Assembly (NCBI RefSeq): GCF_014279655.1
Contig: NZ_CP047946.1
Span: 868,001 to 932,000, forward strand
Direction: 5' to 3'
DNA length: 64,000 nucleotides
Source of the DNA: Synechococcus sp. ROS8604
GTDB lineage: Bacteria; Cyanobacteriota; Cyanobacteriia; PCC-6307; Cyanobiaceae
The translations under genes were made by a program, and so were the position numbers. Of this stretch, positions 5,296 to 37,666 are shown piece after piece (the stretch's first letter is position 1; each line of letters opens with the position of its first letter). The notes beneath the pieces were generated by a model. That model saw only the letters and a list, made by a program, of their open reading frames with translations. It was not told where the DNA came from and searched no databases.

Positions 5296-5348
5296 ATGCG
5301 GTCAAGTTCGCTATCTAGGTCTTGGAGTAATCAAATTCATTTTGCTAC

Positions 5349-14218: not shown

Positions 14219-14299
14219 ATTCGAATTATCTCCTGCCAGCCTTGGTTTGAACAATACCTGTTTGGGTGATTGTTACTTTGCCGCTATCCCCCAATCGGG

Positions 14300-14756: not shown

Positions 14757-17700
14757 ATGCATGATCCTGTTGGTGTATTCAGTCGTACCCGTGAGCTCTA
14801 TCTGAGCTATCTAGACACCGCCTTTCGTATTGAAGACCCAGGGCTTGCCGAGGAAAGACAACAGTTGTTGCGGGAAGCTGGCCGAATGTGCACTGACCCT
14901 TTCCTGGAACCCCAACCAGAGTGGGCTCAGGATGGCCGCAGGTTCGAAGACCTCCTCAAAGAGCAGGGTCCTGAGGCTGCTCTAGGGGAAATGAGCCCAA
15001 AAGCTCGTCATTTGTTCCTTCAACTGATTGGTTGTGGTCTCATTGGCCGTGGGAACAATGGTGAATTATTCAAGCCTTATCGCCACCAACTGCAAATGTT
15101 GCAGAGAGGTGTAAGCGATGGTCAGGCTGGAATCGTGACTTCCGGTACTGGATCGGGCAAGACCGAGGCGTTTTTACTCCCCGTGCTGGCGACGATTATT
15201 GAGGAGGCCACACGGGAACGAGGTGGATGGTCTGCTCCTCATCCTGGGTATTTGCAGAACCGCTGGTGGTGCGATGCCCGTGGCATTCCGTTAGCGAAAC
15301 GGGACAGCACAGGGAACTACGGGTTGCGCGAAGACGTGCAAGTGAAAGGGTTGCAGTGGGATGGATTTAAGGATCGCCATCACCGCAATGGTGAGTCCCG
15401 CACTGCTGCGGTCCGGGCATTGATCCTCTATCCGATGAATGCTCTGGTGGAAGACCAGATGGCGCGACTTCGGGCGGCCATCGATTCACAAGATGCTCGC
15501 GATCTGTTTGCTCAAGAGCTCAACGGCAACCGCATTTTCTTTGGGCGTTACACAGGGCAAACACCAGGAGGTCCTTGCTATTGGCGTCCTCACGAGAGGG
15601 CCCTCGGCTCAGGTGTTGCGTCTTCAGTAAGTACCCCAGTACACGAGCTGATCCCTGGCCTTCCTGCTGATCCAGATCAAGAGCGACCCTTCACTCTGAC
15701 CCGGTGGAAGCAACAGGTCGCCAGTTCGCGCAAGCGACGCATTGAAGAGATGCTTCAGACGTATGCACGCATGGAGGATTTGCAGCAGGCAGTACGCACA
15801 GAGTTGCAGTTGCCGCCAAATCAACAGGCTGGTTGGCAGCAAACAGACGAGCAACGGGAAACGGCCTTCTCGTTCTCAAGCATTGATGGCGGTGAGCTGG
15901 TGTCTCGTTGGGATATGCAACTCACCCCACCCGACATCCTCATTACCAACATCAGCATGCTCAATGCAATGTTGAGCCGCTCCAGTGAAAGGCAAATGCT
16001 GGAGCAAACGCGCCACTGGTTGGAAGCCGATCCAAGAAATCGTTTCACCTTGGTGATTGATGAACTCCACCTTCAACGCGGTAGTGAAGGGACTGAGTTC
16101 ATGTATCTGCTGCGTTTGCTTTTAGTGAGGCTGGGCCTGGATCAACCTGATCGCCATCATCAGCTTCGATTGCTTGCCTCTAGTGCCTCGCTTCCTGCTA
16201 CAGGAACGGAAGGAGAGCAAAGCTTGAATTTCTTGCGTGATGCCTTCGCTGATTTTGGCCTGCCCTTAGGTTCCGAGCGCGAAGCCTGGCGAGATGCAAT
16301 AGTTCCGGGAAATCAAGAGCTGACTGAACCCAGCCCGGAATCCTGGCGGTTACCTCGCAACGCCAACCAAGTTCTGAAAGCTTGTAAGGCCTTTTGGGAG
16401 AGCGATCAAGGTCCATCTGATAACGATGCGCTCCTCGTTTCAAACCACCTGGATGGCTCAAACCTTGGAACTCATCAGCTTGAGTTGCTTGATGCGCTGA
16501 CCGTACCGGCCGCTGCCAATGCGTTGGAGCGCTGGCTGACGTTAGCCACTGCGATCGGTAGCGAATTGGAGAGCGCTTGCCACAACCGCGCTAGCGGCCT
16601 TCATGCCATCGCGACTGCGATTTGGATCAACCATGCCTGGACGGATACCGAGCTGGAAATCGTCCTTCGACTGTTCGCCGCCATTGTTGGGTCTGTCGGT
16701 GAAGGGCATTTCAAAGAGCAGGCGGTACTACCTCGATTCCGGCTCCACACCTTTTTCAAGAACCCAGAAGGTCTATTCACCACGGTGTTGCCTCCCTCAG
16801 AACGAACGGCAAAGGACCCTGACCGCTGGCAAGGCCCTCTTTCTCTAAACCTCAGTGGTCGACAGCTTTCAGAGGGCGCAGATGGCAGTTCTGAGCTGCG
16901 GCGCCAATTTGAGTTGCTCCACTGTGAATGTTGCGGCGAAACCTTTTTGGGTGGCATCCGTTCGAGACAAGATGCCTCAGGCAAAGAGGCCACCCTTCAG
17001 GAGCTGTTGCCCCATGAAGCCGACACGGAGCGGTTGCCTGATCTACCAATGGCCAATCGATTCGAACAGCTCTCGTATGAGGACTACGCAATCCTTTGGC
17101 CGGTAGGCGATAACAGCGAACCCCAAGCTGACGAGGACAACAAAGAGAGGTGGGAGCCCATTTGGCTCGATCCAGTTAGCGGTGTTCTCCGGCATAGCGA
17201 CAACGGTCAAGGCGATTGGCAGCCGGCCTATTTGTTTCAACGACAAGGCGATGAAAAGGTTCACAGGTTGACCAAAACCAGCCCTAGTAGTCATCGCCCC
17301 TGCCGCTGCCCCCGCTGCAAAAGCGACTACAGCCAAAGGCGCAAGCGGGGGACGAATTCCAACCCGTTTACCTATTCCCCCATCCAAAGCCTTAGGCCTT
17401 CCTATGGGCGCACAACTCAACTGCTAGCCACCGAATTATTCGATGCCCTAGCGCGTGGTCGCCACGACGGGCAAGGATCACCGCGGTTGGTCAGTTTTTC
17501 AGACAGTCGGCAGGGCGCGGCTCGGGCGGCTCTCGATGTGGAGAACTTGCATTACCGCGATCTCCTCCGAGAGGTGTTGATGGTGTCGCTCATGGATGTT
17601 GACGCCAGAAGGCGGCGAATGGCCGATGGCGAAGACGGCAACCATCCACTTGAAGTTCAGCTTCGAGAGATTGAGAAAGGCCTTGCTTCCCTGCGGCAGG

Positions 17701-20700
17701 TCGGACTGGCCGATGACAATCAAGCTGTCCAGGAATTACTGAGAAAAAGGCAAGAGTTGCTTGTGCCTTTAAGGCAGGAGCAATTGGGTGTGATTCCCTT
17801 GAGCTCCGTTATTGAAATTGAGGACCCTCGCAGCGGAGATGAGGTGGGTCCGCTGCTCAGAAATCTCTTAAAACTTGGAGTCCACCCCTTTGATGATCGT
17901 GGTCTGCAGCGGGTGAAGGCAGGTCGCAACATCTCCATGCAATGGTGGGAGCTCTTTATCCAAGATCCCGATAACAAGAGCATTTATCGCTGGCATAACC
18001 CCCCGGCCCGAGGACTAAGACCAGATGTTTTCAGTAAGGCCGCTGGAGAAATGGTGCGTGAGCGCGTCCTCAAGGCGCTTGCGGATGTGGTGTTCCACAA
18101 AAGCTATTTCGCCATCGAATCCATTGGACTGGCTATTCCTGTGCCCTTGCCAACGCCAGAACAGCTGGCTGCGGATGACTTCAATTCCGATGATCTTCTT
18201 CAAGCGGCGGCATGGATGCGGATCTACGCCGACGACTATCGCTATGCCCCTTGCCAGTGGGACCCCAAAATACTCTCTATCACTCCAGAGCAGTTAGAGC
18301 GAGGGGCTGCAAATATCGCTCGTGTATTGCAACGCTTTGCCGATCAACAAGGCGGAGAAGCTATCGACTTCTTGTTGCGAGGACAAGACCTGCTCCGCAG
18401 ATTTGGCGGACACTCCGGCCCTGGACGTGACTACGTGGAGCTGAAAGACATCGGTTTTCAGCTTCCATCTGAAGATGCACCATTTTGGCGTTGTGAAAAT
18501 TGCCGGCGTGTCCATCTCCATAGAGGAATTGGTGGATGCACGCGTTGCGGAGCACCTCTATCTGAAAAGCCCAGTGGTCGGCGCGGGGATCTCATCCGCG
18601 AGCATGTTTATGGGCGTCGTCTGCGCCGCACCCTTGACAACTACACAGCAGGTCAGAGCTCTGACTCTGAACTGTTTCGCTTGCGTTGTGAAGAACTCAC
18701 GGGACAGACAGTAGATCCTGCAAGCCGCCAGCGGGAGTTTCGTGGCATCCGACTTGCCGAAGAGCAAAGCCATCCCCTTCAGCCCTATGGCATCGAGATG
18801 CTGGCCGTTACGACAACCATGGAGGTGGGGATAGATATCGGTCCGCTGGAAGCGGTGATGCAGGCCAACATGCCGCCTCAGCGTTTCAACTATCAGCAAC
18901 GGGTGGGGCGTGCCGGCCGCCGCGGCCAAACCTTTTCCTTTGTGCTGACTCTTTGCCGCAGCCGCAGCCACGATCTTCACTATTTCCGCCATCCAGAGCG
19001 GATCACCGGTGATGCACCACCACCACCATTTTTAGTGAAACGGCTTTCACGCATTGCCGAGCGACTCCTGCGCAAGGATCGTTTGATTCACGCCTTCCGC
19101 TGGCTGGAAGAGAGGCAGCGTCTTGCCCAAGGTGATATTTGGGCTGGCGATCTGGTGAAGCCGGTTGATGTTCACGGAGACTTCATCCCCGCCAAGGCGA
19201 TTCAAAATCCTCAGAACTTGCAGCAGTGGCAAGGCTGGTTACAAGAAGCCCTGGAGGCCACTGCCACTGAGGCAGAACGAACCCGCCATGCCTTGAATCG
19301 ACAGAGGCCCATTGATGACAAGAGCTGCGATCCACTTGATATGGAGACAACCACTGAACTTCTCGAGATCTTGGGCTCTGGTCGTCAGCGTGTCGGAGCC
19401 AATACAGCGGGCCTTGCAGCCCATCTCGCCAATGAGGGGGTGCTGCCGATGTATGGCCTGCCCACACGGGTGCGCGACCTAGTGATCGGTGGAGACATGA
19501 GGAAAAGAGAGGTGGTAAGCCTTGATCGTGATCTTGAGGTTGCGATCTATGAGTTCGCACCGGGGAATGTGCTCGTCCACGACAAGCAGGAGCACCGTTG
19601 TGTTGGCCTCACGCCACGCATCGATTGGCAAGGTGGCATTTCAACAAAAGGAGGAGGTTTTAGAACCATCCAGCCGGATCCTTGGGATCGCAGGTTCTCA
19701 CTTGGCTGCTGCCCTGTTTGTGGTGCCTGGCAGGACGTCACAACAATTGCCGAGCTCGAAACAGAACTCACATGCCCGAGCTGCAAAAACCAATCTCCAC
19801 TCAAACAATGGAACCCCAAAAGCTGTGTGGAACCTGCTGGCTTCCGCACCGATTTCAGGCCAGCCACCAACGTGGAATCGTTGCCTGGTACCTACAGCAA
19901 TGCCCTAAGCGCCGACGCTGCTCCGCCCGAACATCAAAGCTGGCAGCACCAGTGCGAAGACTCTGTTGATGGTCCGCTGAAGCTTCGGCTGGTGGCTCGC
20001 GATCAGACAACGGTTTATCGGTTGAATCGAGGCCCTCAGGGATCGGGATTCAACATGACCTGGCGCGAAGGAAAGTTGCGGCGTGCAAGTAGCGAGAGCC
20101 CCAAACTGCAACAACGCGATAATCCAACTCTGCTTGCACAAGCGATTGATCAGCGTCTGAGCAGCGAAAATATGATGAAGTCGGTACTAACGGAACCGCT
20201 GGAAGAACCCCACGACCACAGCGTGATCGATCCGGTGTTTTTCGTTGCCCCACGAGTGACGGATGGTCTTTACCTGCTGCCCGAGGCTGTCAATCCGCTT
20301 TTGGCGATCAATGAGCTGGGCAGTGGCTTAGCGGTTCCAAGGCCTGAGCTACGAGCGGGTTCACACGGCCCTGATGGCAGTAACTACTGGCAGGGCGTAC
20401 GGGCAGCAGCGATTTCGGCAGCACAACTTCTGATCGCTCGCTCAACTCGAGAATTGGATGTAGACCATCGTTCGCTTGAAGCGGTAGAGCCAAGGCCGTT
20501 TGCGATGGATGGCCAAAGATTGCCCTTAATCCAAATGGTTGATGCGCACGTCAACGGTGCCGGTTTCAGTGCCTGGCTCGGAGACGAACGGCAAGGCGTT
20601 GCACCAATCCTGGACCATATTCGCCAATGTCTTAATACTGCCGGAAGCAATCAGGTCAGAAGCGATGACAGCCCTGAAGCTTTGGCTTGGAGTGATTCGA

Positions 20701-21215
20701 AGCATCGAGATTCATGCCAAGACAGTTGCTATACCTGCCTGAAGACCTATGAAAACCAAGCTGTCCACGGTCTGCTGGATTGGCGTTTGGCACTTTGTTA
20801 TTTGAGGGCCTTTGTTCAACCTCAATGGAATTGTGGCCTTGATGGTGATTACAGCTGGGCGCCGCTGAGTGACTGGCCGGAGCAGGCTGAGAGGGTTGCC
20901 ACACTCAACCTGCGCCTTTGGGGTGGAAATGCCCGAGAAGACCTAGTGCGTTTCAGTCAGCGTGATGACTTGATTGCTTTTCGCCTCAAGACCAACACAC
21001 CGGTCAGCAAACCGTGGGTGATTGTCCGACATCCCCTCTGGCGCTGGGGCCTTGAAGGAGGCACCCTGACGGAGTTTGAGTCAGAACTAAAACAACGAGA
21101 TCCAGATCAATCCGTGGTTTGTTGGGACACCTTCAACCTCAGCCGCCGCCCTGGACGCAGTAGAGAGTGGATGTCTGTGCAAGGAGCTAGACGAAGAAGA
21201 AGGCGAAATAAATAA
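14757..21215 (+). CDS. DruE-like giant helicase with DUF1998 C-terminus
   Basis: 2152 residues. A DEAD/DEAH-type superfamily 2 helicase with Walker A SGTGSGKT at 129-136, DELH at ~435 and motif VI QRVGRAGRRGQ at ~1381. Four Cys clusters suggest zinc sites: CECCGETF (~722) with CRCPRC (~848), CENCRR with CTRCGA (~1245-1265), CCPVCGAW with CPSC (~1650-1680), and the DUF1998 signature CQDSCYTCLKTYENQ near 1987. Size, motif order and C-terminus match DruE, the helicase common to Druantia defence systems, better than the split DISARM pair DrmA/DrmB. No DruH or DruM/F/G gene is recognisable next to it. It is divergent from the DUF4011 operon and upstream of the type I restriction genes. The function is inferred to be phage defence. 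Confidence 0.85.
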   Translation: MHDPVGVFSRTRELYLSYLDTAFRIEDPGLAEERQQLLREAGRMCTDPFLEPQPEWAQDGRRFEDLLKEQGPEAALGEMSPKARHLFLQLIGCGLIGRGNNGELFKPYRHQLQMLQRGVSDGQAGIVTSGTGSGKTEAFLLPVLATIIEEATRERGGWSAPHPGYLQNRWWCDARGIPLAKRDSTGNYGLREDVQVKGLQWDGFKDRHHRNGESRTAAVRALILYPMNALVEDQMARLRAAIDSQDARDLFAQELNGNRIFFGRYTGQTPGGPCYWRPHERALGSGVASSVSTPVHELIPGLPADPDQERPFTLTRWKQQVASSRKRRIEEMLQTYARMEDLQQAVRTELQLPPNQQAGWQQTDEQRETAFSFSSIDGGELVSRWDMQLTPPDILITNISMLNAMLSRSSERQMLEQTRHWLEADPRNRFTLVIDELHLQRGSEGTEFMYLLRLLLVRLGLDQPDRHHQLRLLASSASLPATGTEGEQSLNFLRDAFADFGLPLGSEREAWRDAIVPGNQELTEPSPESWRLPRNANQVLKACKAFWESDQGPSDNDALLVSNHLDGSNLGTHQLELLDALTVPAAANALERWLTLATAIGSELESACHNRASGLHAIATAIWINHAWTDTELEIVLRLFAAIVGSVGEGHFKEQAVLPRFRLHTFFKNPEGLFTTVLPPSERTAKDPDRWQGPLSLNLSGRQLSEGADGSSELRRQFELLHCECCGETFLGGIRSRQDASGKEATLQELLPHEADTERLPDLPMANRFEQLSYEDYAILWPVGDNSEPQADEDNKERWEPIWLDPVSGVLRHSDNGQGDWQPAYLFQRQGDEKVHRLTKTSPSSHRPCRCPRCKSDYSQRRKRGTNSNPFTYSPIQSLRPSYGRTTQLLATELFDALARGRHDGQGSPRLVSFSDSRQGAARAALDVENLHYRDLLREVLMVSLMDVDARRRRMADGEDGNHPLEVQLREIEKGLASLRQVGLADDNQAVQELLRKRQELLVPLRQEQLGVIPLSSVIEIEDPRSGDEVGPLLRNLLKLGVHPFDDRGLQRVKAGRNISMQWWELFIQDPDNKSIYRWHNPPARGLRPDVFSKAAGEMVRERVLKALADVVFHKSYFAIESIGLAIPVPLPTPEQLAADDFNSDDLLQAAAWMRIYADDYRYAPCQWDPKILSITPEQLERGAANIARVLQRFADQQGGEAIDFLLRGQDLLRRFGGHSGPGRDYVELKDIGFQLPSEDAPFWRCENCRRVHLHRGIGGCTRCGAPLSEKPSGRRGDLIREHVYGRRLRRTLDNYTAGQSSDSELFRLRCEELTGQTVDPASRQREFRGIRLAEEQSHPLQPYGIEMLAVTTTMEVGIDIGPLEAVMQANMPPQRFNYQQRVGRAGRRGQTFSFVLTLCRSRSHDLHYFRHPERITGDAPPPPFLVKRLSRIAERLLRKDRLIHAFRWLEERQRLAQGDIWAGDLVKPVDVHGDFIPAKAIQNPQNLQQWQGWLQEALEATATEAERTRHALNRQRPIDDKSCDPLDMETTTELLEILGSGRQRVGANTAGLAAHLANEGVLPMYGLPTRVRDLVIGGDMRKREVVSLDRDLEVAIYEFAPGNVLVHDKQEHRCVGLTPRIDWQGGISTKGGGFRTIQPDPWDRRFSLGCCPVCGAWQDVTTIAELETELTCPSCKNQSPLKQWNPKSCVEPAGFRTDFRPATNVESLPGTYSNALSADAAPPEHQSWQHQCEDSVDGPLKLRLVARDQTTVYRLNRGPQGSGFNMTWREGKLRRASSESPKLQQRDNPTLLAQAIDQRLSSENMMKSVLTEPLEEPHDHSVIDPVFFVAPRVTDGLYLLPEAVNPLLAINELGSGLAVPRPELRAGSHGPDGSNYWQGVRAAAISAAQLLIARSTRELDVDHRSLEAVEPRPFAMDGQRLPLIQMVDAHVNGAGFSAWLGDERQGVAPILDHIRQCLNTAGSNQVRSDDSPEALAWSDSKHRDSCQDSCYTCLKTYENQAVHGLLDWRLALCYLRAFVQPQWNCGLDGDYSWAPLSDWPEQAERVATLNLRLWGGNAREDLVRFSQRDDLIAFRLKTNTPVSKPWVIVRHPLWRWGLEGGTLTEFESELKQRDPDQSVVCWDTFNLSRRPGRSREWMSVQGARRRRRRNK

Positions 21216-21592
21216 AATAGCGAGTGAATATGTCTAAAAAATGCTGTCAGCAAGTCGTACGTATTAAACGCATAAAATTCGCGTTATTTGCAGAGAGCAG
21301 TCCAAATCAATTTATGCTTTAAGGAGATGAAATGACACTTTGATGACACTTCCTGCTGTTTTTGAAGTATGGAGTTAAAAACGAGTGACTGAATCCCCCA
21401 TCCGGGGGAGGACAAGATCCTGCCTTTAACCCAAGATGGCCTCATCTCGATAACGATTGGCTGAATAGCTCCTGATGGGTAGGACCGAAACGCAAGTCAA
21501 CTTCAATAGGCATAGAGCTTGCTCAGATAAAAGCATCTGCATTGACGATGGTTGGTTTCCCAGCGTTTTCATCCAACTAGGTGTGCAGTGAG
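21216..21592. other. Intergenic region before hsdR
   Basis: About 377 bases without a convincing gene. It holds a short hairpin at 21394-21409 and a purine-rich Shine-Dalgarno-like AAGGAGATG near 21325 that leads only into very short frames. It probably contains the hsd operon promoter, which I cannot place with confidence. Confidence 0.4.
21394..21409. other. G/C hairpin
   Basis: TCCCCC-ATCC-GGGGGA is a perfect 6-bp stem with a 4-base loop. There is no T-run on either strand, so it is a weak terminator candidate. It could be an mRNA structure or pause site between the giant helicase gene and hsdR. Confidence 0.4.
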
Positions 21593-24500
21593 ATGCAAAG
21601 CAACTTCACCCATATCGCCACCTACGACAAAGCCCTGTTTCGTCTGAGCAGTAATGCAGAGCGTTACTTCCCTGATGACCCCAATACGGCTCTGATCAAG
21701 CTGCGGCAATTTGGGGAGTTGCTGGCCCAACAGGTGGCCTCGCGTTTTGGTCTCTATGCCGGCAGCGAAGAAAGCCAGCTGGAGCTTCTGCGTCGTATGG
21801 AGAGCAATGGTGATCTCGAAAGGGATGTAGCCGTGTTGTTCCACAACCTGCGGCAAGCAGGCAACGCCGCAACTCACCGCCTCGAGGGCGATCACGGCAC
21901 GGCACTACAGAACCTGAAGGTGGCCTGGCAACTCAGCCTTTGGTTCCATCGAACCTTTGGCAACGATGCGAACTACCGCAGTGGCCCCTTTCAGCCACCG
22001 CAACCGCCTGAGCAAGAAACCTCGAGTGATGAGGCCCTACAAAAAGAACTTGAAGCTCTTAGGCGGGAGTACGAGCAGGGGCTAGCCAATGAGAGTGCCC
22101 TCACCCAGGCACTCAAAGCTCAGGCCGAACAGCTGAATGAATCGCTCAGCCTGCAGCAGGAGTGGGAAAACCTCGCGGAAGAAAGTGAAGCTGAAAAAGC
22201 AGAGCTCGCTCAAAAACTGATCACGTTGCAAGCAGCGGCTAGCAACGAAGCTGGAAGCATCCGGAGTGAACGCAAGCAAGCCGGCAAGAAAGCTTCAGGG
22301 CTGATCAATCTGGATGAAGCAGCAACCCGTGAACTCATTGATGCCCAGTTGCGAGAAGTGGGCTGGGAATGCGACACCAAGCAACTCACTTATGCCAAGG
22401 GCGCCAGACCAGAAGCCAACTACAACAAGGCCATTGCCGAATGGCCCTGCAAAGGCGGGGTCGCCGATTACGTGCTGTTTTTAGGGCTTACACCAATTGC
22501 AGCAGTAGAAGCGAAACGTGCTCATAAAGATGTTGCGGGTGTGATTCCTCAGGCCGAGCGTTACTGCGAAACCTACGTTTCAGATGACCAGAACCACGCT
22601 GCTTCAAGCGCTAATGCGGGTGGTCCGTTTCCTATTCCCTTTGCTTTCGCATCAAACGGAAGGCCCTACCTTCCGCAGCTGAAAACCAAAAGTGGCATTT
22701 GGTTCCGCGATACCAGAAAGGGCACGAATCTCAGCAGACCTCTTGATGGCTTCTACACACCGGAAGGGCTCAAGGCCATGGTCCGGCGTGACAGCACCCA
22801 GGCCCATGAGCAACTCAAACGAGAGAGCTTCAACTACGGCTTTCCTTTGCGGCGCTACCAACAACAAGCCATTGAGTCTGCTGAATCGGCGATTGGAGCT
22901 GGGCAAAAAGAGATCTTGCTGGCGATGGCCACTGGCACGGGCAAAACCAAAACTTGCATAGCTCTGATCTACCGGTTGCTGAAAACCAACCGCTTTGGGC
23001 GGGTGCTGTTTTTGGTGGATCGCTCCGAGCTCGGCCGGCAGGCAGCTGATGCGTTCAAGGAAACGCGGATGGAGAGCTTGCAGACCTTCGCTGACATTTA
23101 CGGCATCAAAGAGCTAGGCGAGAAAGAGGTCGAGAGCGATACGCGCGTTCACATCGCCACCGTGCAAGCAATGGTCCAGCGCTTGATGCTTGGCAATGAC
23201 GAAGAGAAGCCCAGCGTCGACACCTATGACCTGATCGTGGTCGACGAGTGCCATCGCGGTTACCTGCTGGACCGGGAGCTGAGTGAGCGGGAGCTGGGTT
23301 TCCGCAACTTCAACGACTACGTGTCGAAATACCGGCGCGTGATCGAGCATTTCGATGCCGTGAAGGTGGGCCTTACAGCTACGCCTGCTCTCCACACCGT
23401 GGACATCTTCGGCGAACCGGCTTTTGTTTACAGCTATCGAGAAGCGGTGGTTGATGGCTTTCTGGTTGACCACGAGCCACCCACACTGATCACAACTGAT
23501 CTCTCCAGCGACGGAATCCATTTCTCCGCTGGGGATGAAGTGAAGGTGTTTGATCCCGGCTCTGCTGGGATGGATCGCTTCAACACACCAGATGCCCTCG
23601 ACTTTGAGGTGGAAAGCTTTAACCGCAAGGTGATCACCGAGCCGTTTAATCGTGCGGTTTGCCGCTTTCTGGCCACGGAGTTGGATCCGCAGTCACCACA
23701 AAAAACGCTGATCTTCTGTGCCACTGATGCCCATGCCGACATGGTGGTGACGCTCCTTAAAGAAGCTCTTCAAGAGCAATACGGCAGCGTCTCTAACGAT
23801 GCGGTGGCCAAGATCACCGGCGCAAGTGACAAACCTGCAGACCTGATACGCCACTACAAAAACGAAGCCTTCCCCAACATTGCGGTCACCGTGGATCTGC
23901 TGAGTACGGGGGTGGATGTGCCATCGATCTGCAACATCGTTTTCTTGCGGCGGATGAACAGCCGCATCCTGTACGACCAGATGATTGGTCGTGCCACGAG
24001 GCTTTGCGAAGCGATTAATAAAACCCACTTCCGCATCTTTGATGCGGTGGGCATCTACGAAGCCCTCAAGAACTTCAGCGACATGAAGCCAGTCGTAGCT
24101 GACCCCAAGATCAGCATTGGCCAGCTGCTTGAGGAATTTGCTCAGGAGCATGACCCCAGCACCTTGGAGCTGATCCGTGATCAGTTGGTGGCCAAGGTTC
24201 GCCGTAAGGCTCGCGGCCTCAACGAGCACCAGGGCGACCAAGTGCAGCAAGTGACGGGAGAGCAGCCTCTGGATTTCGTGAAGCGGTTGGTGGACTTGCC
24301 CGTGGAAGACGCCAGCCGTTGGATCCAGCGCATGCCACGCCTCGCCGAAGTGCTGGATGCACCAACGGGCGGTGGTAGTCAACCGCAGGTGATCTCTGAT
24401 CATCCCGATGCGTTGCGCTCTACGGAGCACGGTTATGGCAAAGGCCGAAAGCCTGAGGACTATCTGGAGGAATTCAGCCGTTTCATCAAGCAAGAAGGGA

Positions 24501-24958
24501 ATGAGCTTCCAGCCCTCAATCTGGTGTTGCAAAAACCATGGGAACTCACGCGCGATGACTTAAAGCAATTGCGCATTGCTCTTGATGCGGAGGGTTACAA
24601 CGAAGCCAGCCTGCGCACAGCTTGGCGTGACACCACCAACCAAGAGCTGGTGGCCTCGATCATGGGGCACATCCGACGGGCAGCCCTTGGGGATGCGCTT
24701 GTCCCCTACTCAGAGCGGGTGGACAAAGCCTTGCAACGCATCCTGGTTTCACAAAATTGGACTCGACCGCAACGGGATTGGCTGCAGCGCATTGCCAGCC
24801 AAACCAAGTCGATCACGATTGTTGATCGTGCCGCGATTGATGATCAAGGCATGGTGTTCCGTAAAGAAGGAGGCGGCTGGCCCCGGCTCAACAAGGTGTT
24901 CAATGAGGAGCTGGGTGAGGTGCTGGAGCTATTCCAGCGTGAAGTCTGGGCGGCCTAA
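21593..24958 (+). CDS. hsdR: Type I restriction enzyme R subunit
   Basis: About 1121 residues. The N-terminal ~120 residues are a DUF4145-like helical domain (NERYFPDDPNTALIKLRQFG-type, with NAATHRLEGD). A coiled coil follows (~150-225), then the HsdR nuclease region with PD-(D/E)xK residues in VADYVLFL and AVEAKR (~290-306), and a superfamily 2 motor with Walker A TGTGKT (~447), DECHRGY (~552) and IGRATRLCE late motifs. R subunits translocate DNA and cut it when the recognition site is unmethylated. The ATG at 21593 is preferred to a GTG four codons upstream. hsdM follows after 31 bases. The gene layout and domains match the EcoEI-like R subunits. Confidence 0.93.
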   Translation: MQSNFTHIATYDKALFRLSSNAERYFPDDPNTALIKLRQFGELLAQQVASRFGLYAGSEESQLELLRRMESNGDLERDVAVLFHNLRQAGNAATHRLEGDHGTALQNLKVAWQLSLWFHRTFGNDANYRSGPFQPPQPPEQETSSDEALQKELEALRREYEQGLANESALTQALKAQAEQLNESLSLQQEWENLAEESEAEKAELAQKLITLQAAASNEAGSIRSERKQAGKKASGLINLDEAATRELIDAQLREVGWECDTKQLTYAKGARPEANYNKAIAEWPCKGGVADYVLFLGLTPIAAVEAKRAHKDVAGVIPQAERYCETYVSDDQNHAASSANAGGPFPIPFAFASNGRPYLPQLKTKSGIWFRDTRKGTNLSRPLDGFYTPEGLKAMVRRDSTQAHEQLKRESFNYGFPLRRYQQQAIESAESAIGAGQKEILLAMATGTGKTKTCIALIYRLLKTNRFGRVLFLVDRSELGRQAADAFKETRMESLQTFADIYGIKELGEKEVESDTRVHIATVQAMVQRLMLGNDEEKPSVDTYDLIVVDECHRGYLLDRELSERELGFRNFNDYVSKYRRVIEHFDAVKVGLTATPALHTVDIFGEPAFVYSYREAVVDGFLVDHEPPTLITTDLSSDGIHFSAGDEVKVFDPGSAGMDRFNTPDALDFEVESFNRKVITEPFNRAVCRFLATELDPQSPQKTLIFCATDAHADMVVTLLKEALQEQYGSVSNDAVAKITGASDKPADLIRHYKNEAFPNIAVTVDLLSTGVDVPSICNIVFLRRMNSRILYDQMIGRATRLCEAINKTHFRIFDAVGIYEALKNFSDMKPVVADPKISIGQLLEEFAQEHDPSTLELIRDQLVAKVRRKARGLNEHQGDQVQQVTGEQPLDFVKRLVDLPVEDASRWIQRMPRLAEVLDAPTGGGSQPQVISDHPDALRSTEHGYGKGRKPEDYLEEFSRFIKQEGNELPALNLVLQKPWELTRDDLKQLRIALDAEGYNEASLRTAWRDTTNQELVASIMGHIRRAALGDALVPYSERVDKALQRILVSQNWTRPQRDWLQRIASQTKSITIVDRAAIDDQGMVFRKEGGGWPRLNKVFNEELGEVLELFQREVWAA

Positions 24959-24989
24959 TGAGAATCCAAACAATGAGACGTAAGACAGC

Positions 24990-26450
24990 ATGAGCGGCAA
25001 AACCACCACCGATATCGTTGCCAAGCTTTGGGGCCTCTGCAACGTCCTCAAAGACGACGGGGTGACGTATCACCAATACGTCTCTGAGCTGACCTATCTG
25101 CTGTTTTTGAAGATGGCGAAGGAGACCGGCACAGAGGCTGGAATCCCAGAGGAATGGCGCTGGGATGCGCTCGAGCCGCTTAGCGGGCTTAAGCAGATGG
25201 AGCACTACAAGCTGCTCTTGTTGGAACTGGGGAGTTCTGAAAGCGGTGCATCGGTTTTGGTGCAGGAGATCTATGCCAACGCCAGCTCATTCGTCAAAAG
25301 GCCCGTCACGCTGAACAAGCTGGTGGAGGAGATCGACAAGCTCGATTGGTACAGCGCCAAAGAGGAAGGGTTGGGCGATCTGTACGAGGGGCTGCTGCAG
25401 AAGAACGCCGAAGAGAAGAAGTCAGGGGCAGGTCAATATTTCACGCCACGTCCACTCATCGATTCGATGGTGGCGGTGATGCAACCCCAGCTCGGAGATG
25501 TGATCCAAGATCCTGCTGCTGGTACCGGCGGTTTCTTGATTGCAGCGCGCAGCTGGATCGCCAATCACCAAGACATCTATTCACTCACGGAAGCTGAGCA
25601 ACAACGCTTTTACCGGCGCACGTTCTTTGGGATGGAGCACGTGCAGGACACTCACCGCTTGGCGTTGATGAACCTGATGCTGCACAACTTGCAGTCGACA
25701 AGTGGTGAAGGTGGCATCCGCTATGGCGACACGATGAGCAGTGAGGGAGAAGGGCTGCCCAGGGCCAGTTTGATGTTGACCAACCCACCCTTTGGCACCA
25801 AAAAAGGCGGGGGGCTACCCAGCCGCACTGACTTCACCTTCCCCACCGCCAACAAGCAGTTCTGCTTCCTGCAACACATCTATCGGGGCTTGCAACCGGG
25901 CGGCCGTGCCGCTGTGGTGCTGCCCGACAACGTGTTGTTTGAAGGCAACGTGGGCCGCCAGATCAGGGAAGACCTGATGGCCAAATGCGATCTGCACACG
26001 ATCCTGCGCCTACCCACCGGCATTTTCTACGCGCAGGGCGTGAAGACCAACGTGCTGTTCTTCACCCGAGGCCAACACGATCAAGGCAACACCGATCAGG
26101 TGTGGGTCTATGACCTGCGGGCCAACATGCCGAAGTTCGGCAAGCGCACCCCACTCACTCGCGCCCATTTCAGCGAGTTTGAAGCCGCCTATGGCTCTAA
26201 TCCCTACGGCAAAGCTGATCGCACAGCCACCGGGCCTGATGGCCGTTGGCAATGCTTCAGCAGCGATGAAATTGCTGCCCGCGACTTCAGCTTGGATCTG
26301 GCTTGGTTGCGGGATGAGTCAGCCGATGACGCTGAAGATCTACCGGAACCTGAAGTTCTTGCTCAGGAGGCAATGGATGAGCTGGAAGAAGCATTAGGCC
26401 TTTTAGGCCAGCTAATAACCGAAATTTCCTTCGAGGCCGAAACCAAATAA
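24990..26450 (+). CDS. hsdM: Type I restriction-modification DNA methylase, M subunit
   Basis: 486 residues, the normal length for HsdM. An N-terminal helical domain is followed by the N6-adenine methylase core, with the SAM-binding motif QDPAAGTGGFLIAA at ~172 and the catalytic LTNPPFG at ~262, then a C-terminal acidic helix. It methylates adenine in the host recognition sequence and, with HsdS, forms the modification enzyme. With HsdR it forms the full restriction complex. Both key motifs are intact. hsdS starts 7 bases after the stop. Confidence 0.95.
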   Translation: MSGKTTTDIVAKLWGLCNVLKDDGVTYHQYVSELTYLLFLKMAKETGTEAGIPEEWRWDALEPLSGLKQMEHYKLLLLELGSSESGASVLVQEIYANASSFVKRPVTLNKLVEEIDKLDWYSAKEEGLGDLYEGLLQKNAEEKKSGAGQYFTPRPLIDSMVAVMQPQLGDVIQDPAAGTGGFLIAARSWIANHQDIYSLTEAEQQRFYRRTFFGMEHVQDTHRLALMNLMLHNLQSTSGEGGIRYGDTMSSEGEGLPRASLMLTNPPFGTKKGGGLPSRTDFTFPTANKQFCFLQHIYRGLQPGGRAAVVLPDNVLFEGNVGRQIREDLMAKCDLHTILRLPTGIFYAQGVKTNVLFFTRGQHDQGNTDQVWVYDLRANMPKFGKRTPLTRAHFSEFEAAYGSNPYGKADRTATGPDGRWQCFSSDEIAARDFSLDLAWLRDESADDAEDLPEPEVLAQEAMDELEEALGLLGQLITEISFEAETK

Positions 26451-26457
26451 AGAGAAG

Positions 26458-28035
26458 ATGACACCATTCGATCGGCGATTAAATACAACACTTGGCGAGA
26501 TTTGCGATATAGCAAGTGGCGCAGGCTTTCCAAAGCATCTTCAGGGAAAAACGGAAGGTGAATTAGCATTTGCCAAAGTTTCCGACATTTCGGAAGCCGT
26601 TAAATCTGGTCAGCCCCTAACAACTACAAAAAATTACATCACCACAGAGGTTTCCAAGGAATTAAGGGCAAAAGTATTTCCACCCGGCTCAACCTTATTT
26701 GCAAAGATTGGAGAAGCAATTCGCCTCAATAGAAGGGTAATTACAGCCATCAACTGCTGTGCAGATAACAACGTAATGGCAGTTGTGCCGAACAAAGAGA
26801 TAAGCGATAAATTCATTTTCTACTTCTTAAGGACGATTTCCTTCGTTGATGCCTCAAGAGCAACAACTGTTCCTTCAATACGGAAAAGCGATGTCGAGTG
26901 CATCGAAATCAACCTACCGCCACTGCAGGAGCAACACCGCATCGCCGACAAGCTCGAAACCACGCTCGCCGCCGTTGAAGCCTGCAGACAAAAGCTCAAC
27001 AATGCCGCCGAAACCATCCAGCGATTCCGCCAATCCGTTCTGGCCGCAGCTGTTTCTGGTGAGCTGACGAGGGAGTGGAGAGAAGAGAGGGGGATTGAAG
27101 GGGAGTGGCCCAAAGTTTCACTATCAGACCACGTCACCAAACCCGCTTATGGGACATCGTCCAAATCCAGTCCCTCAGGATTGGTACCAGTGCTTCGGAT
27201 GGGAAATATTCAAAACATGAAACTTGACTGGGGAGATCTGGTTTACACATCAGCTGCAGAAGAGATCGAAAAATACCAACTCAAAAAAGGCGATGTCCTT
27301 TTTAATCGAACAAATAGCCCAGAGCTTGTAGGCAAGACTGCTATTTACAATGCCGAAAGACAAGCCATATACGCGGGATATCTAATCAGAGTCAGATGCA
27401 ACAACACATTGCTCCCGGAATACTTAAATTTCAGCTTGAACTCGCCGCAGGGCAGGCACTATTGCTGGAGGGTGAAGTCAGACGGTGTGAGCCAGTCCAA
27501 TATCAACTCAAAAAAACTCGGATCTTACAAATTTGGCCTACCTAGCATTGAAGAGCAGGAAGAGCTATGTCAGCAGATAAACCTCTTACTTAGTAACGGC
27601 GAAGAGATCGAGCTGAAGATCCAATACTCATTGCGAGTTCTCAACAACTTCACCAAAGCATTACTTGCCAAAGCCTTCCGCGGCGAGCTTGTCCCGCAAG
27701 ACCACAACGACGAGCCGGCCTCAGTGCTGCTGGAACGGATCAAAGCCCAACGTGAAGCAGAAGCAGCAAACAAAAAGCCAGCCAAGCGAGGCAGAAAGAA
27801 GAAGGCTGATGCTGCTCAGCTCGCCATTCCTGACGGCATTGCCGACAACCACCTCGCCAAGGTGCTTGAAGAATGCGGGCCCCTTAGTGAATTAGCTCTG
27901 CTTGCCGCTTCAGGGCTTGAACCTCGAATATTTAAGTTGCAGCTGGCGAAAGAGCTCAGCGTTAATGGGCTCATGCAGGTCGATTTGCATGGCGAAGCTG
28001 CCTATGCCGATGCAGCCTGGGAGGAGGAGTTATGA
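26458..28035 (+). CDS. hsdS: Type I restriction-modification specificity subunit with C-terminal extension
   Basis: 525 residues. Two target-recognition domains alternate with conserved helices: TRD1 (~1-150), LPPLQEQHRIADKLETTLAA (~158), TRD2 (~215-355) and LPSIEEQEELCQQI (~362), then a closing helix with FRGELVPQD. These define the bipartite DNA site. Beyond the normal end (~435) there is an extra ~85 residues: a basic linker (KKPAKRGRKKK) and a small helical domain ending DAAWEEEL that looks like a winged helix. This extension is longer than in many HsdS proteins and could contact DNA or the partner Mrr protein. The stop overlaps the next start by four bases (ATGA). Confidence 0.92.
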   Translation: MTPFDRRLNTTLGEICDIASGAGFPKHLQGKTEGELAFAKVSDISEAVKSGQPLTTTKNYITTEVSKELRAKVFPPGSTLFAKIGEAIRLNRRVITAINCCADNNVMAVVPNKEISDKFIFYFLRTISFVDASRATTVPSIRKSDVECIEINLPPLQEQHRIADKLETTLAAVEACRQKLNNAAETIQRFRQSVLAAAVSGELTREWREERGIEGEWPKVSLSDHVTKPAYGTSSKSSPSGLVPVLRMGNIQNMKLDWGDLVYTSAAEEIEKYQLKKGDVLFNRTNSPELVGKTAIYNAERQAIYAGYLIRVRCNNTLLPEYLNFSLNSPQGRHYCWRVKSDGVSQSNINSKKLGSYKFGLPSIEEQEELCQQINLLLSNGEEIELKIQYSLRVLNNFTKALLAKAFRGELVPQDHNDEPASVLLERIKAQREAEAANKKPAKRGRKKKADAAQLAIPDGIADNHLAKVLEECGPLSELALLAASGLEPRIFKLQLAKELSVNGLMQVDLHGEAAYADAAWEEEL

Positions 28036-28979: not shown

Positions 28980-29104
28980 GGAGGGAATATGCGCATCACA
29001 TCTTTTAACTGGCAACTTCAGAGGCGACACTCACTCAAATCACGACTAACAAGCTATATAAATATGTTTCTTTATCATTTAACTGAGACACAACTTCTTC
29101 ATTA

Positions 29105-30937: not shown

Positions 30938-33496
30938 TTAATTTTCTGGAAGAGTAGTAATTGGCAGGAATTTCTGGATGCTTTGACTACGTTCTAAATC
31001 TCTTGACGCGAAATACCGATAGGTGTGATCACTGGGCTGATGCCTTGTTGGACCAGGCATATAACTGCCAGTAAGTGCGAGATAACGCGCAAGGGGTAGT
31101 GGGAGATAGGCCTGAGCGTCGTACAAACGATCTAGTTGGCCTCTGTCTTGATCCGTGAAGCCAAATGGCCAAAGACCATCGGTAGCAATCACCAAGGCAT
31201 GCAGAGCTACCCGATTGAAGTGGCAGCTGCTGAACTCCGCTCCGTTAACTGGATCAATGCTGTGCCAGCGCCTTTTACCGCGAGCAGTGATCTCTGAATC
31301 AATTTTCAAGCTGATTGGTGCTCGGTATTGCTCTGGTAGTGGCTGCGTTGGCTTCCAATGATGATCCAGGCCTCGTCTTCCACATACTCGATCCGATAAA
31401 CGACGACCCCTTAGACCCGTAGGCCAAGTCGATCCGGCATCGCAAGCCAGTGGCTTGTCCAGTACCCACGACGCATGACGGGGGTCAGGAATCCAGTCCG
31501 ACTGCTCTACAAGCGATAGACCACAAGCTTCAGATAGTGCCCTGATATCACCGTTGAAGCGCCAGCCTCGGGGCATGTCGGGACAACTTGGCGGAACTGA
31601 ACGTACCGTGAGCTTCAGCTGATGTGCGCAAGCCAGAACGGCCATCAAACGGCGCGCACCGAGTAACCCCACGAGCTGTGCTCCACCTCCTTCAAGTTGC
31701 ACCAACCGTGGATCAATGGCCTGAATTTGCCAACGGCCATTGATGCTTTCCAGACCCTCTTCGAGCCATCCCCCTTCGCACCATCCACGCAAAACAGCTT
31801 CCGCAAATCCCGGCCATTCATTTGGTTTGTTGCGCAGTTGGCTGTAAAGGGCATAAAAATCGCGACGAGGAAGAGATCCACGTCGTTGGAACAATGCCGA
31901 GAGGCTCTCCAGCATCTGCTGTTCAAACAGATGGTTGACGTTGTAGTCATGCTCATGAATTCGCTGCCATGCCCATCTCAATTCGGCTTCATCGAGGTGA
32001 ATGCTCGGGGACAATGATGGAGGGAGAGAAAGGGGTCCAAGTTTTAATTCCCAGTCCTCACGGAAGGCCAAATGATGTTTTCGGCGAAATGGAAGCGATG
32101 CATCAAGTGCAGCCAATCGGATCGTTCGTTCTTGGAGGCTGCCATCGTTGAAAGCTGCCTCAAGCACTGCAGCGCCTATTGGAAGCTCCTTTAATCGACG
32201 CAGCTTGGAGGAAGGTTCCCAAAGCTGACGCTCAGCTTCGCTTGCTCGATCGTTGAATTTTTCGTAGAGCCCACAGGTTTGATCGGCAAAGCGTATTTGG
32301 ACTAATTCCGCTGAAAGTCCTTCCGGAATCGCTAGAAGGGGTAATCCAAGCCCTGATGCTAAGTAACCTTTTCCCTCAGCCAATCGAACTCCCCCACGAT
32401 TACTAATCCGGGGTTCCTGCAAAACAACTGCAGGTGAGATAGATCCCATTTGGGAAACAACATGCTGCAATGCGTGATGAGATTCTTCGCTTTGTATTTC
32501 AAAGCCCTGCCATCGGTCGTCATCAAAATCCAGTGGCAGAGATTCTGCTCCGCAGTTTTGAAGCAAGGAAGCAAATTTTTCTTGAACCAAGACGTGCGTC
32601 GCATCGCTGAGCTGCTCGAGGCGGAGCAGCCGAAGCAAGCGCAGTTCGGGATCCATCGCGAAAGGCAGAACTCCCGTGTTTAACCAAGGATGAAGTGTGT
32701 CGCCTGAGATTTCCGGTTCATCAAGAGCGCGAAAACCAGCTTCTAAAGGCGCATACAACTCGTCTTCGGGATCCTGCGGAACAACTAATGCCTGGTCAGC
32801 CAGCCAGTCCGAGGTGGCATCTATTCTAAATTCTTCTGGAATGGATTGGCCTGGGCTGTGAAGCAGCAATAGACCAAAAGCATAATCGAGGTCTTTTAAA
32901 AGCAGTGGACCAAGTGATCCGCGAGCAGCCTCAATGTTGCTTTCTTCTATTGGTTCTATCTCTATTGATATAGAGCTACTCTCGGAATCCTTCAGATCCG
33001 GCTCTTCTTGTACTGCAGGTGCTGATAACACTTGCACATCAGCAGGCAGTAAGGGCTCCTTTTCTTCTTCATTTCGGCCAAGAAGCTGTAATGCCTGGCG
33101 CTTGATTTGCCTAAGCCGCATCACAATTGGTAGCAATCTGGCCAACTTGATCACCCATGGCGTCAAGCCACCAGGACTTGGCTCGTCGATGATCGATGCC
33201 GTTTCGTCAAGTCCCGTCTCGAGATCCCCAACGATTTCGGCGATGCGGGCATTAAGAGCATGGATTCGTATCCGGCTTTCCGCTTCGTCTCTTAGGTCGT
33301 TTTCGATATCCTGCAATTGTGATTGCAAATCAAGAATTAGTTTCTGGCGTCTTGAGTCGTGTCCTTTTAATGCACTACGTGAGCGGTTGGCACTGACAAG
33401 TAATTTCCTAGCGCGCAAATACTCCTCCATGAGATTTTCTGGTGGAGGGTTAGTTGGAAGATTGCTGGCGTCATATGGATCAGTATTGTTTTTCAT
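30938..33496 (-). CDS. Large hypothetical protein, third gene of an unknown operon (852 aa)
   Basis: About 852 residues from ATG 33496, which has AGGTGAG upstream. The alternative GTG at 33508 overlaps the preceding stop. The N-terminal ~140 residues are a helical, partly coiled-coil domain homologous to the 159-residue product at 33934-34413: both have ENDL..EA..R...HA.N and GL..W. An acidic linker (~145-205) follows, then ~650 residues rich in Leu, Arg and Trp with no motif that I recognise. The middle region around 500-560 has winged-helix character (LPRRDFYALYSQLRNKPNEW, then AVLRGWCEGGWLEEG). No nuclease, kinase, helicase or transmembrane motif is evident. Position inside a defence island suggests, but does not show, a defence role. 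Confidence 0.75.
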   Translation of the reverse strand: MKNNTDPYDASNLPTNPPPENLMEEYLRARKLLVSANRSRSALKGHDSRRQKLILDLQSQLQDIENDLRDEAESRIRIHALNARIAEIVGDLETGLDETASIIDEPSPGGLTPWVIKLARLLPIVMRLRQIKRQALQLLGRNEEEKEPLLPADVQVLSAPAVQEEPDLKDSESSSISIEIEPIEESNIEAARGSLGPLLLKDLDYAFGLLLLHSPGQSIPEEFRIDATSDWLADQALVVPQDPEDELYAPLEAGFRALDEPEISGDTLHPWLNTGVLPFAMDPELRLLRLLRLEQLSDATHVLVQEKFASLLQNCGAESLPLDFDDDRWQGFEIQSEESHHALQHVVSQMGSISPAVVLQEPRISNRGGVRLAEGKGYLASGLGLPLLAIPEGLSAELVQIRFADQTCGLYEKFNDRASEAERQLWEPSSKLRRLKELPIGAAVLEAAFNDGSLQERTIRLAALDASLPFRRKHHLAFREDWELKLGPLSLPPSLSPSIHLDEAELRWAWQRIHEHDYNVNHLFEQQMLESLSALFQRRGSLPRRDFYALYSQLRNKPNEWPGFAEAVLRGWCEGGWLEEGLESINGRWQIQAIDPRLVQLEGGGAQLVGLLGARRLMAVLACAHQLKLTVRSVPPSCPDMPRGWRFNGDIRALSEACGLSLVEQSDWIPDPRHASWVLDKPLACDAGSTWPTGLRGRRLSDRVCGRRGLDHHWKPTQPLPEQYRAPISLKIDSEITARGKRRWHSIDPVNGAEFSSCHFNRVALHALVIATDGLWPFGFTDQDRGQLDRLYDAQAYLPLPLARYLALTGSYMPGPTRHQPSDHTYRYFASRDLERSQSIQKFLPITTLPEN

Positions 33497-33500
33497 CGCA

Positions 33501-33941
33501 TCACTCACCTACAAGATCTTCAATTAAAGACAACAGTTCTGCTTTGCTAAACGCGTGTAATGGAGTCGGTGGAGCAACTACTCCTTTGGAATCAAGCCTC
33601 GCAATGATTTCTTTTTTATTCATTCGTGAATAGCCACGAATTCCATTCTTTTTGCATAGATAAATTAGATCAGCCCTTAGCTGCTTCTCAAAACTTGGCT
33701 GGCCTTGCAATAGAGGACGAGGGGAAATCGAATCCTCATTTTTATGATCTACCTGCTGACCATCTTCTCTTGCTTCCTGATCAAGAATCGCCCGCGTACG
33801 CTGAAGGTGCTCGCCGATCGACCGGTAAAGCCTGGCGTCACTTCGAGCAAGCTCTTGATTAGCCGCCAAAAACATATCGGCAAGAGAACCGTTTGACTCC
33901 TTTGTGGGATTGAGGCTTGCTTGATCTGGAATATCAGCCAT
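33501..33941 (-). CDS. Rho-N/SAP-like domain protein, second gene of the unknown operon
   Basis: 146 residues. The N-terminal half is helical (SLADMFLAANQELARSDARL and on). The C-terminal half carries a motif of the Rho-N/SAP type (LRADLIYLCKKNGIRGYSRM followed by NKKEIIARL), and the extreme C-terminus looks like part of a second one (FSKAELLSLIEDLVGE). These small helix-extended-loop-helix folds bind nucleic acid. The start overlaps the upstream stop by eight bases (ATGGCTGA). The stop overlaps the GTG alternative of the next gene by eight bases. This compact arrangement implies coordinated expression and probably a complex of the three products. Confidence 0.75.
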   Translation of the reverse strand: MADIPDQASLNPTKESNGSLADMFLAANQELARSDARLYRSIGEHLQRTRAILDQEAREDGQQVDHKNEDSISPRPLLQGQPSFEKQLRADLIYLCKKNGIRGYSRMNKKEIIARLDSKGVVAPPTPLHAFSKAELLSLIEDLVGE

Positions 33942-34413
33942 TGAAAGTATTTTGGTCAGTCACAACAGGCAGGCTTTGTTGTCTTTGTTTAAAAGCGCGC
34001 CAACGTTTCTTGATAGATTTCAACCGTTCAATCCATGTACTCAGACCAGTGCGAGGAGTTTTGTGAGCGGATTCAACAGAATTTGATATCTCCTCAGTAA
34101 AACCATCAACTTCCTTGAGAACAGCCAGTAGTTTCTCGTTCATGGCATGCAATTGCATGCGAGTTTGAGCTTCAATAACCAAATCATTTTCTAGTCTTTC
34201 AATCTCGGCACGAACCTCAAGGATGATGCGTTTTTTATCGTCCATGCTGCTGCGCCAAAGTCCACGAGCAGTATTGGTCTCATTCAGGGCTTGCAGTAGT
34301 GCTGGGTATAGTGTCTCTAATGCCTCTGCTTTAGGAGCCCTGGGGAACTCTTTTGCAGATCGGAATGCTGGCATTAAACATTGATTTGCGTGTTGCAATG
34401 CAGTGCCAGTCAT
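33934..34413 (-). CDS. Coiled-coil protein, first gene of the unknown operon
   Basis: 159 residues. Residues ~36-148 align with residues ~32-144 of the large third-gene product, with one short gap: a long charged helix (RIILEVRAEIERLENDL), the block EAQTRMQLHAMN, an acidic-turn segment, then GLSTWIERL and a basic helix (KKRWRAFKQRQQSL). The protein is therefore essentially a free-standing copy of the large protein's N-terminal domain. The arrangement suggests hetero-oligomerisation through this domain. No Shine-Dalgarno sequence is obvious before the ATG. No known family is recognised. Confidence 0.72.
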   Translation of the reverse strand: MTGTALQHANQCLMPAFRSAKEFPRAPKAEALETLYPALLQALNETNTARGLWRSSMDDKKRIILEVRAEIERLENDLVIEAQTRMQLHAMNEKLLAVLKEVDGFTEEISNSVESAHKTPRTGLSTWIERLKSIKKRWRAFKQRQQSLPVVTDQNTFNG

Positions 34414-37242: not shown

Positions 37243-37629
37243 ATGAGTGCTACTAAGACATTGATTTCTGTTGCTGAAGCCGCTGAAATTCTTGGTCGAT
37301 CCAAAAGTACAGTTTATGCCGCTTTGAATGCATTGCCTCCAAGGCTGCATTATCAGGATGTACGGCGTCGTTTGCTTCTAAGGGAAGGTCTTGAAGCACG
37401 TTTCGCTCGATCAACCCGTCCAAGAATTGATAAACCTCAGGCACAGGCTTCAGAGGCAAAGAGCAAGACAGCAAACGATTTTGAGAAGCAATGGGAGATC
37501 ATTGCAAAAATTGCAAACAAAACTCTTGATAGCAGCGCTTGGTCAGGACCTCCATGGTCGGGTAAACAATGGGCGGTATTGGCTGGAACTATTGAGGTCG
37601 GCATGGAAGCACTGGATGCTGAAACGTAG
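37243..37629 (+). CDS. Helix-turn-helix protein, excisionase-like
   Basis: 128 residues. Residues ~6-50 form a MerR/excisionase-type helix-turn-helix (TLISVAEAAEILGRSKSTVY), in which the domain reads a DNA site through a short recognition helix. A basic linker follows, and the C-terminal ~50 residues are helical with a Trp/Pro-rich patch (SAWSGPPWSGKQWAVL). It is convergent with the serine recombinase gene, with 37 bases between the stops. Such small HTH proteins often act as recombination directionality factors or transcription regulators of the element. The role as an excisionase is inferred from context and domain. Confidence 0.7.
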   Translation: MSATKTLISVAEAAEILGRSKSTVYAALNALPPRLHYQDVRRRLLLREGLEARFARSTRPRIDKPQAQASEAKSKTANDFEKQWEIIAKIANKTLDSSAWSGPPWSGKQWAVLAGTIEVGMEALDAET

Positions 37630-37641
37630 AAGGTTTTACCG

Positions 37642-37661
37642 GATCTTCTCAATCGAAGATC
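37642..37661. terminator. Hairpin between convergent genes
   Basis: GATCTTC-TCAATC-GAAGATC forms a 7-bp stem with a 6-base loop between the stops of the HTH gene and the recombinase gene. Only a short T-run (CAGTTTTCAG) follows on the plus strand. It could act as a weak bidirectional terminator. Confidence 0.35.
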
Positions 37662-37666
37662 AGTTT

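What the first reader, a model, noticed from the sequence alone, without database searches (positions are those of the whole stretch)
30938..34413. Three-gene operon of unknown function with a domain shared by its first and last products
The three minus-strand genes run with an 8-base overlap between genes 1 and 2, and the gene 2 stop lies at or overlaps the start of gene 3. The 159-residue first product aligns over ~113 residues with the N-terminus of the ~852-residue third product, sharing ENDL..EA..R...HA.N and GL..W with one short gap. The middle protein has a Rho-N/SAP-like nucleic-acid-binding motif. The large protein has no recognised enzyme motif. The arrangement suggests a complex in which the small protein docks on or mimics the large one. 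It sits inside a defence island, so a new anti-phage or DNA-processing system is plausible. Nothing in the sequence proves that role.
Basis: partly seen in the sequence, partly recalled or inferred. Interest (0 to 1): 0.85.

Follow-up and report, generated by a model that had tools for sequence, protein, structure and literature searches.

The report
Druantia-like operon with swappable helper genes
The three genes are probably one arm of a Druantia-type anti-phage system: the large protein is a relative of the Druantia subunit DruF, and the two small proteins are a helper pair that this group of cyanobacteria also places in front of several other DNA-attacking defence systems.

Summary
In detail: both junctions can overlap by 8 bases, and A (159 aa) truly shares a domain with the N-terminus of C (E 1e-11; 0 of 500 shuffles). 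B carries a SAP/Rho_N-like domain. C is a divergent relative of DruF, the uncharacterised subunit of Druantia type II; the matching helicase DruE2 lies 9.7 kb away at 14757-21215. In 400 family genomes, 8 have strong DruE2 and all 8 encode C; the ninth genome with C has DruE cut by a contig end. DruG was not found in 7 genomes tested. The fresh part is A-B, a coiled-coil plus SAP pair. A lies directly upstream of B in 50 of 51 strong places. In one subfamily 25 of 31 pairs lead into a defence gene (type I RM, GmrSD, DrmD, PLD-SNF2 or C); in the other only 2 of 20 do. Near-identical DrmD genes carry very different A-B pairs. C has an A-domain in 5 of 5 genomes with A-B-C, and lacks it in 3 of 3 without A-B. 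Best reading: A-B is a swappable nucleic-acid-binding docking module, fused into DruF here. Function is untested.

The parts
33934..34413 (-). gene A, 159 aa, coiled-coil-like protein homologous to the N-terminus of C
33501..33941 (-). gene B, 146 aa, long helix plus SAP/Rho_N-like domain
33576..33701 (-). SAP/Rho_N-like domain of B (residues 81-122)
   Evidence: fold match range 81-122; Rho_N 90-114
30938..33508 (-). gene C, 856 aa (852 from ATG 33496), DruF-type protein with an A-domain at its N-terminus
33083..33472 (-). A-domain of C (residues 13-142)
30938..32911 (-). core of C (about residues 200-856), shared with A-domain-free DruF-type proteins beside DruE
14757..21215 (+). DruE2, Druantia II helicase, 2152 aa, probable partner of C
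   Evidence: PADLOC E 0; co-occurrence; motifs GSGKT, DELH, QRVGRAGR
21581..28035 (+). type I RM genes hsdR, hsdM, hsdS between DruE2 and C; neighbours, not claimed as parts of the system
   Evidence: HsdR, HsdS; HsdM from sequence

Best explanation
A-B-C is the non-helicase arm of a Druantia-II-like anti-phage system whose helicase, DruE2, lies 9.7 kb away in the same island. C is a DruF-type subunit that lacks the usual DruF N-terminal domain and carries a copy of A there instead. Inferred working: A and the A-domain of C pair as coiled coils; B, through its SAP/Rho_N-like domain, holds the assembly on DNA or RNA; C senses or loads, and DruE2 is the motor. A-B would do the scaffold job proposed for the coiled-coil subunit of standard Druantia II. 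Shown: shared domain, conserved linkage, C-DruE2 co-occurrence, DruF relationship, exchange of A-B between operons. Inferred: complex, nucleic-acid binding, replacement of DruG, phage defence.
For: A-C homology. DruE2 in the window. Of 400 family genomes, 8 have strong DruE2 and all 8 have C; the ninth C genome has the first 253 residues of a DruE, 62% identical to the window's, cut by the contig end. A-domain-free C proteins start with the DruF N-terminal domain (E 4.6e-15 and 2.6e-19) and lie within 10 bases of DruE. C family against DruF: probability 98.5, E 4e-15, 762 columns in order. G597 carries DruE2, A, B, C and DruM2 (E 1.6e-92) in one stretch. The A-domain in C goes with A-B: 5 of 5 with, 0 of 3 without. 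B resembles SAP and Rho_N domains.
Against: No DruG found in 7 C genomes (one weak partial hit) and no C5 methylase in the window's genome, so two subunits of standard Druantia II are missing. In the window C and DruE2 are 9.7 kb apart on opposite strands. The DruF profile match leans on A-domain-free members: without them probability 25, E 7.7e-4; the PADLOC DruF profile hits 1 of 5 A-domain C proteins and 0 of 291 phylum genomes, with no control ringing. One A-B subfamily is mostly not beside defence genes. No functional data.
Confidence: 0.58

Rival explanations
1. A-B is a regulatory leader pair: a nucleic-acid-binding switch that controls expression of the operon behind it and is no part of the effector. 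C and DruE2 alone would make the Druantia machine.
For: A-B is first in the operon with start-stop overlaps; it is exchanged between unrelated effectors; Druantia of G496 and G526 has C-DruE without A-B.
Against: No 8-mer shared upstream of A beyond shuffles in 16 loci. A copy of A fused into C fits a protein contact better than a regulator, and the fusion appears only where A-B is present.
Confidence: 0.25
2. A-B serves a general chromosomal task (for instance nucleic-acid handling) and was only carried along into defence islands, except that one copy was fused into DruF.
For: In the second A-B subfamily only 2 of 20 pairs lead into a defence gene; others precede HD hydrolases or unmatched genes, also in small genomes.
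Against: In the first subfamily 25 of 31 pairs lead into a defence gene; different A-B pairs sit before 86% identical DrmD genes.
Confidence: 0.12
3. C is a specificity or accessory subunit of the neighbouring type I RM system, not of DruE2.
For: Type I genes lie near C in the window, G328 and V. limneticus.
Against: C goes with DruE in 9 of 9 genomes and lies directly beside DruE without type I genes between in G496, G526, G633 and G568.
Confidence: 0.05

Closest known systems
Druantia type II (DruM, DruF, DruG, DruE2), also called Type IV CoCoNuT
   Same: DruE2 helicase; DruF-type C; DruM2 present in the G597 copy
   Different: no DruG found; no DruM in the window's genome; DruF N-terminal domain replaced by an A-domain; A-B added; C and DruE2 separated in the window
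Druantia type III (DruH, DruE)
   Same: two large partners, one of them a YprA-type helicase; DruH is the likely sensor (PMC13192584, passages read)
   Different: C has no DruH match at E<=1 in PADLOC, and the helicase fits DruE2 far better than DruE3
SAP and Rho_N domain proteins (Ku70 SAP, Rho N-terminus)
   Same: B's C-terminal domain by sequence and fold
   Different: B is a 146-aa protein with a long helix and no ATPase; matches are weak
small leading regulators of RM, DISARM or BREX operons (recalled)
   Same: small genes at the head of defence operons
   Different: those are HTH or WYL proteins (recalled); A-B shows no such domain and no shared upstream motif

Membership tests
Druantia type II | DruE2 helicase | tested here: met
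   PADLOC DruE2 E 0, 1654 bits
Druantia type II | DruF | tested here: inconclusive
   Family-level profile match E 4e-15, but the window's C alone has no DruF match at E<=1 and lacks the DruF N-terminal domain
Druantia type II | DruG | tested here: not met
   0 in the window's genome; 1 weak partial hit in 7 C genomes
Druantia type II | DruM cytosine methylase | tested here: not met
   no PF00145 match in the window's genome; present beside C in G597
Druantia type II | subunits in one operon | tested here: not met
   9.7 kb apart, opposite strands in the window; adjacent in G496, G526, G633, G568; same strand nearby in G597
Druantia type III | DruH | tested here: not met
   C: 0 PADLOC families at E<=1
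SAP/Rho_N superfamily (B) | two-helix SAP or Rho_N motif | tested here: met
   26 of 34 members Rho_N at E<=0.01; Ku70 chain E 5.2e-7 from two matches that are each weak alone; fold Z 4.8
Druantia systems in general | protection against phage | not testable with these tools
   needs a phage challenge

The most novel reading that the evidence does not exclude
A-B is a plug-in nucleic-acid-sensing clamp of one bacterial family: the same two-protein head is moved between type I RM, GmrSD, DrmD/DrmMI, PLD-SNF2 and Druantia effectors and is needed by each, so that unrelated defences share one recognition front end.
Probability: 0.22. Interest if true: 0.82.

Novelty: new variant of a known kind. 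Interest (0 to 1): 0.6.

Why it matters
The three Druantia/YprA papers I searched do not mention DruF, so its role is open; this variant shows that its N-terminal domain can be exchanged for a coiled coil matching a separate partner, which points to that end as a docking site. If A-B really serves several unrelated systems, it would be a common handle on many cyanobacterial defences.

Tried and rejected
Housekeeping family for C: no match. DruG or DruL relation of C: weak only; a two-member set (Rubrobacter 473-aa protein and a DruG) gave E 0.0042 at probability 8. Plasmid and phage copies of C: none at E<=0.01. B in viral contigs: none confirmed. Shared motif upstream of A in 16 loci: none beyond shuffles. 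The 311-aa protein at 34918-35853 as a fourth component: no similarity to the 171-aa protein upstream of A-B in L014. Model of C: mean pLDDT 63.5, pTM 0.52, 8 sequences; no Foldseek match at E<=0.001; an Ig-like hint at 364-468 rests on Z 7.0 and is a lead only. The 705-aa protein after C in G597 does not resemble the ATP-binding protein of the Rhizobium locus. Solved-structure relatives of C by sequence: none at E<=1. tRNA in the window: none.

Limits. Searches covered 400 genomes of the family, 386 and 98 of the phylum, drawn evenly from larger groups. One search's list of places was capped; 51 listed places have B at 100 bits or more, and all 51 were examined (38; those 13 were left out at first). 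The two subfamilies are my split by score and sequence. Weaker B-like hits were not counted. L013, L048 and L054 have only remnants of the partner and L057 ends at a contig edge; L048 was not counted as followed by a defence gene. The partner proteins used as references were taken from these same neighbourhoods, and a few of its 16 control matches are the A-domain of C or genes inside A-B operons, so that contrast is descriptive. In G633 both C and DruE look damaged (stop in C; DruE frame of 860 aa). Hhalign E-values are for single pairs of shallow alignments. In the tree long branches meet.

Full report
OBSERVATION. The three genes are present as written. A (33934-34413), B (33501-33941) and C (30938-33508) are on the minus strand and overlap by 8 bases at each junction if C starts at its GTG; an in-frame ATG at 33496 gives 852 residues. 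A and the first 142 residues of C are homologous: BLASTP E 1e-11 for this one comparison; alignment score 128 against a best of 58 in 500 shuffles. B is related to neither. B has a sub-threshold Rho_N match.

WHAT C IS. Alone, C hits no library at E<=1. Homologues resolve it. Relatives with an A-domain occur in G328, G527 (V. limneticus), G422 (A. feldmannii) and G597. In 400 genomes of the family the C profile finds nine with the core of C: these four, the window's own, and G496, G526, G633 and G568, whose C has no A-domain match; 22 further genomes match only through the A-domain. In G496 and G526 C starts with the N-terminal domain of DruF (PADLOC DruF2 E 4.6e-15 and 2.6e-19). The G597 protein carries both the A-domain and that DruF domain (E 1.9e-11). 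Profile comparison of eight C proteins with four plasmid DruF proteins aligns 762 columns in order, probability 98.5, E 4e-15; DruG, DruL and a mixed set are far weaker. The result leans on the A-domain-free members: without them it is E 7.7e-4 at probability 25, over the last third only. The PADLOC DruF profile itself found 0 of 291 phylum genomes, the window's included, with no control ringing, and hits 1 of 5 A-domain C proteins.

ITS HELICASE. The 2152-residue protein at 14757-21215 (+) is DruE2 (PADLOC E 0), with GSGKT, DELH and QRVGRAGR in place. Strong DruE2 (E<=1e-200) occurs in 8 of 400 family genomes, and all 8 encode C. The ninth C genome, G526, has C a few bases before the start of a DruE cut by the contig end; those 253 residues are 62% identical to the window's DruE2. 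In G496, G633 and G568 C also lies within 10 bases of DruE. In the window and G328 the two are separated by type I genes and lie on opposite strands. In G422 A-B-C and DruE converge, DruE being split over two contigs. In G527 they are on different contigs. G597 gives the fullest set: DruE2, A, B, C, a 705-residue protein overlapping C by 4 bases, a 247-residue protein, and a cytosine methylase fitting DruM2 best (E 1.6e-92). DruG was not found in 7 C genomes apart from one weak partial hit, and the window's genome has no C5 methylase match. So the window's set works, on this reading, like Druantia II but fails features that define it.

THE A-B DYAD. A search with B in 400 family genomes matched 100 at E<=0.001, many weakly or in long repeat proteins. 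All 51 listed places with B at 100 bits or more were examined. A lies directly upstream of B in 50: 37 of 38 and 13 of 13; the exception is a damaged second copy in the window's own genome (L074). In the first subfamily, with the window's type of B, 25 of 31 pairs are followed within 300 bp by the start of HsdR, HsdM, GmrSD with HsdR, DrmD (with DrmMI), a PLD-SNF2 helicase, or C. In the second only 2 of 20 are, both DrmD; others precede HD hydrolases, an exonuclease or genes without a match. Of other genes in the first 38 loci 16 of 465 are so followed, a descriptive contrast because the references came from these loci. A and B diverge together (Mantel r 0.91, 0 of 2000 permutations, 29 pairs), which the two subfamilies alone would favour, and are under purifying selection (dN/dS 0.06-0.31 in ten comparisons). 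They are exchanged between effectors: DrmD of L014 and L075 are 86% identical, yet their A proteins share 27.5% and their B proteins 50%; conversely L014 and L063 share A at 85% and B at 82%, but their helicases at 34%. Outside the family B was found in 0 of 97 phylum genomes at E<=1e-8, and not in the viral collection.

THE LINK BETWEEN A-B AND C. C carries an A-domain in 5 of 5 genomes where A-B stands before it. It lacks one in G496, G526 and G633, where the upstream DNA holds no A or B at E<=1; the G568 contig is too short to tell. The A-domains of C form one group in the tree (100/99) and the A proteins of these loci another (98/96), apart from those of other loci. One fusion followed by joint inheritance is the simplest reading.

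HOW IT MAY WORK. B is modelled as a long helix and a compact SAP/Rho_N-like domain (mean pLDDT 78.8), with weak sequence matches to the Ku70 SAP region and Rho and low-Z fold matches to Rho and FAN1. C is modelled with an N-terminal helical part, a disordered linker and a beta-rich body with an Ig-like stretch (mediocre model). A preprint on YprA helicases (PMC12458937; abstract start and passages seen) says that Druantia I and II are a fourth CoCoNuT group encoding an inactive CnuB homologue, and that a coiled-coil insert in the type II helicase may contact that homologue's extended coiled coil. That this homologue is DruG is my inference, as is its replacement by A-B and the A-domain of C. 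In Druantia III DruH is the likely sensor and DruE the effector (PMC13192584, passages seen). By analogy C would sense or load and DruE2 act. None of this is shown here.

KNOWN OR NEW. Paper searches for Druantia with DruF, Rho termination factor with RM and Synechococcus, Druantia with DruE, CoCoNuT, cyanobacteria with Druantia and DISARM, and Rho_N or SAP with defence or type I restriction listed nothing that I recognised as describing the A-B pair; I saw listings, and passages of four papers. PMC12458937, PMC13192584 and PMC13316683 have no mention of DruF; PMC11090510 was searched only for Druantia, Rho, SAP domain and cyanobacteria. I rate the set as a new variant of Druantia II with a helper dyad that appears undescribed.

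Noticed in passing
own genome G000:C1:1502078-1502446 (locus L074): A second, damaged A-B copy (shortened A, stop in B) before an HD-domain gene.
   Followed up: partly
window 28032-30730: An Mrr-type restriction endonuclease (Mrr_cat E 1.9e-34) and a protein joining a type-I-specificity-like stretch to an AlbA_2 domain follow the type I genes.
   Followed up: no
window 8988-14254: A 1339-aa helicase-like protein (PADLOC candidate PDC-S37, E 2.7e-234) next to a 416-aa trypsin-like protease: a possible further defence pair.
   Followed up: no
window 37243-39415: A serine recombinase (Resolvase and Recombinase domains) and a small HTH protein beyond the operon, perhaps the island's mobility genes.
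   Followed up: no
L082, L083, L084: Distant A-B-like pairs (B about 36-44 bits; A detected in two of three) precede a conserved gene of about 181 aa without a Pfam match.
   Followed up: no
L117 (Rubrobacter marinus plasmid) 4833-7989: DruF may be split here: a 380-aa protein with the DruF N-terminal domain, then a 131-aa and a 473-aa gene directly before DruE.
   Followed up: partly
family genomes of genus g147 (e.g. G496:C8): Proteins with open frames of about 2000-2600 aa carry several repeats resembling B's SAP/Rho_N-like domain.
   Followed up: no
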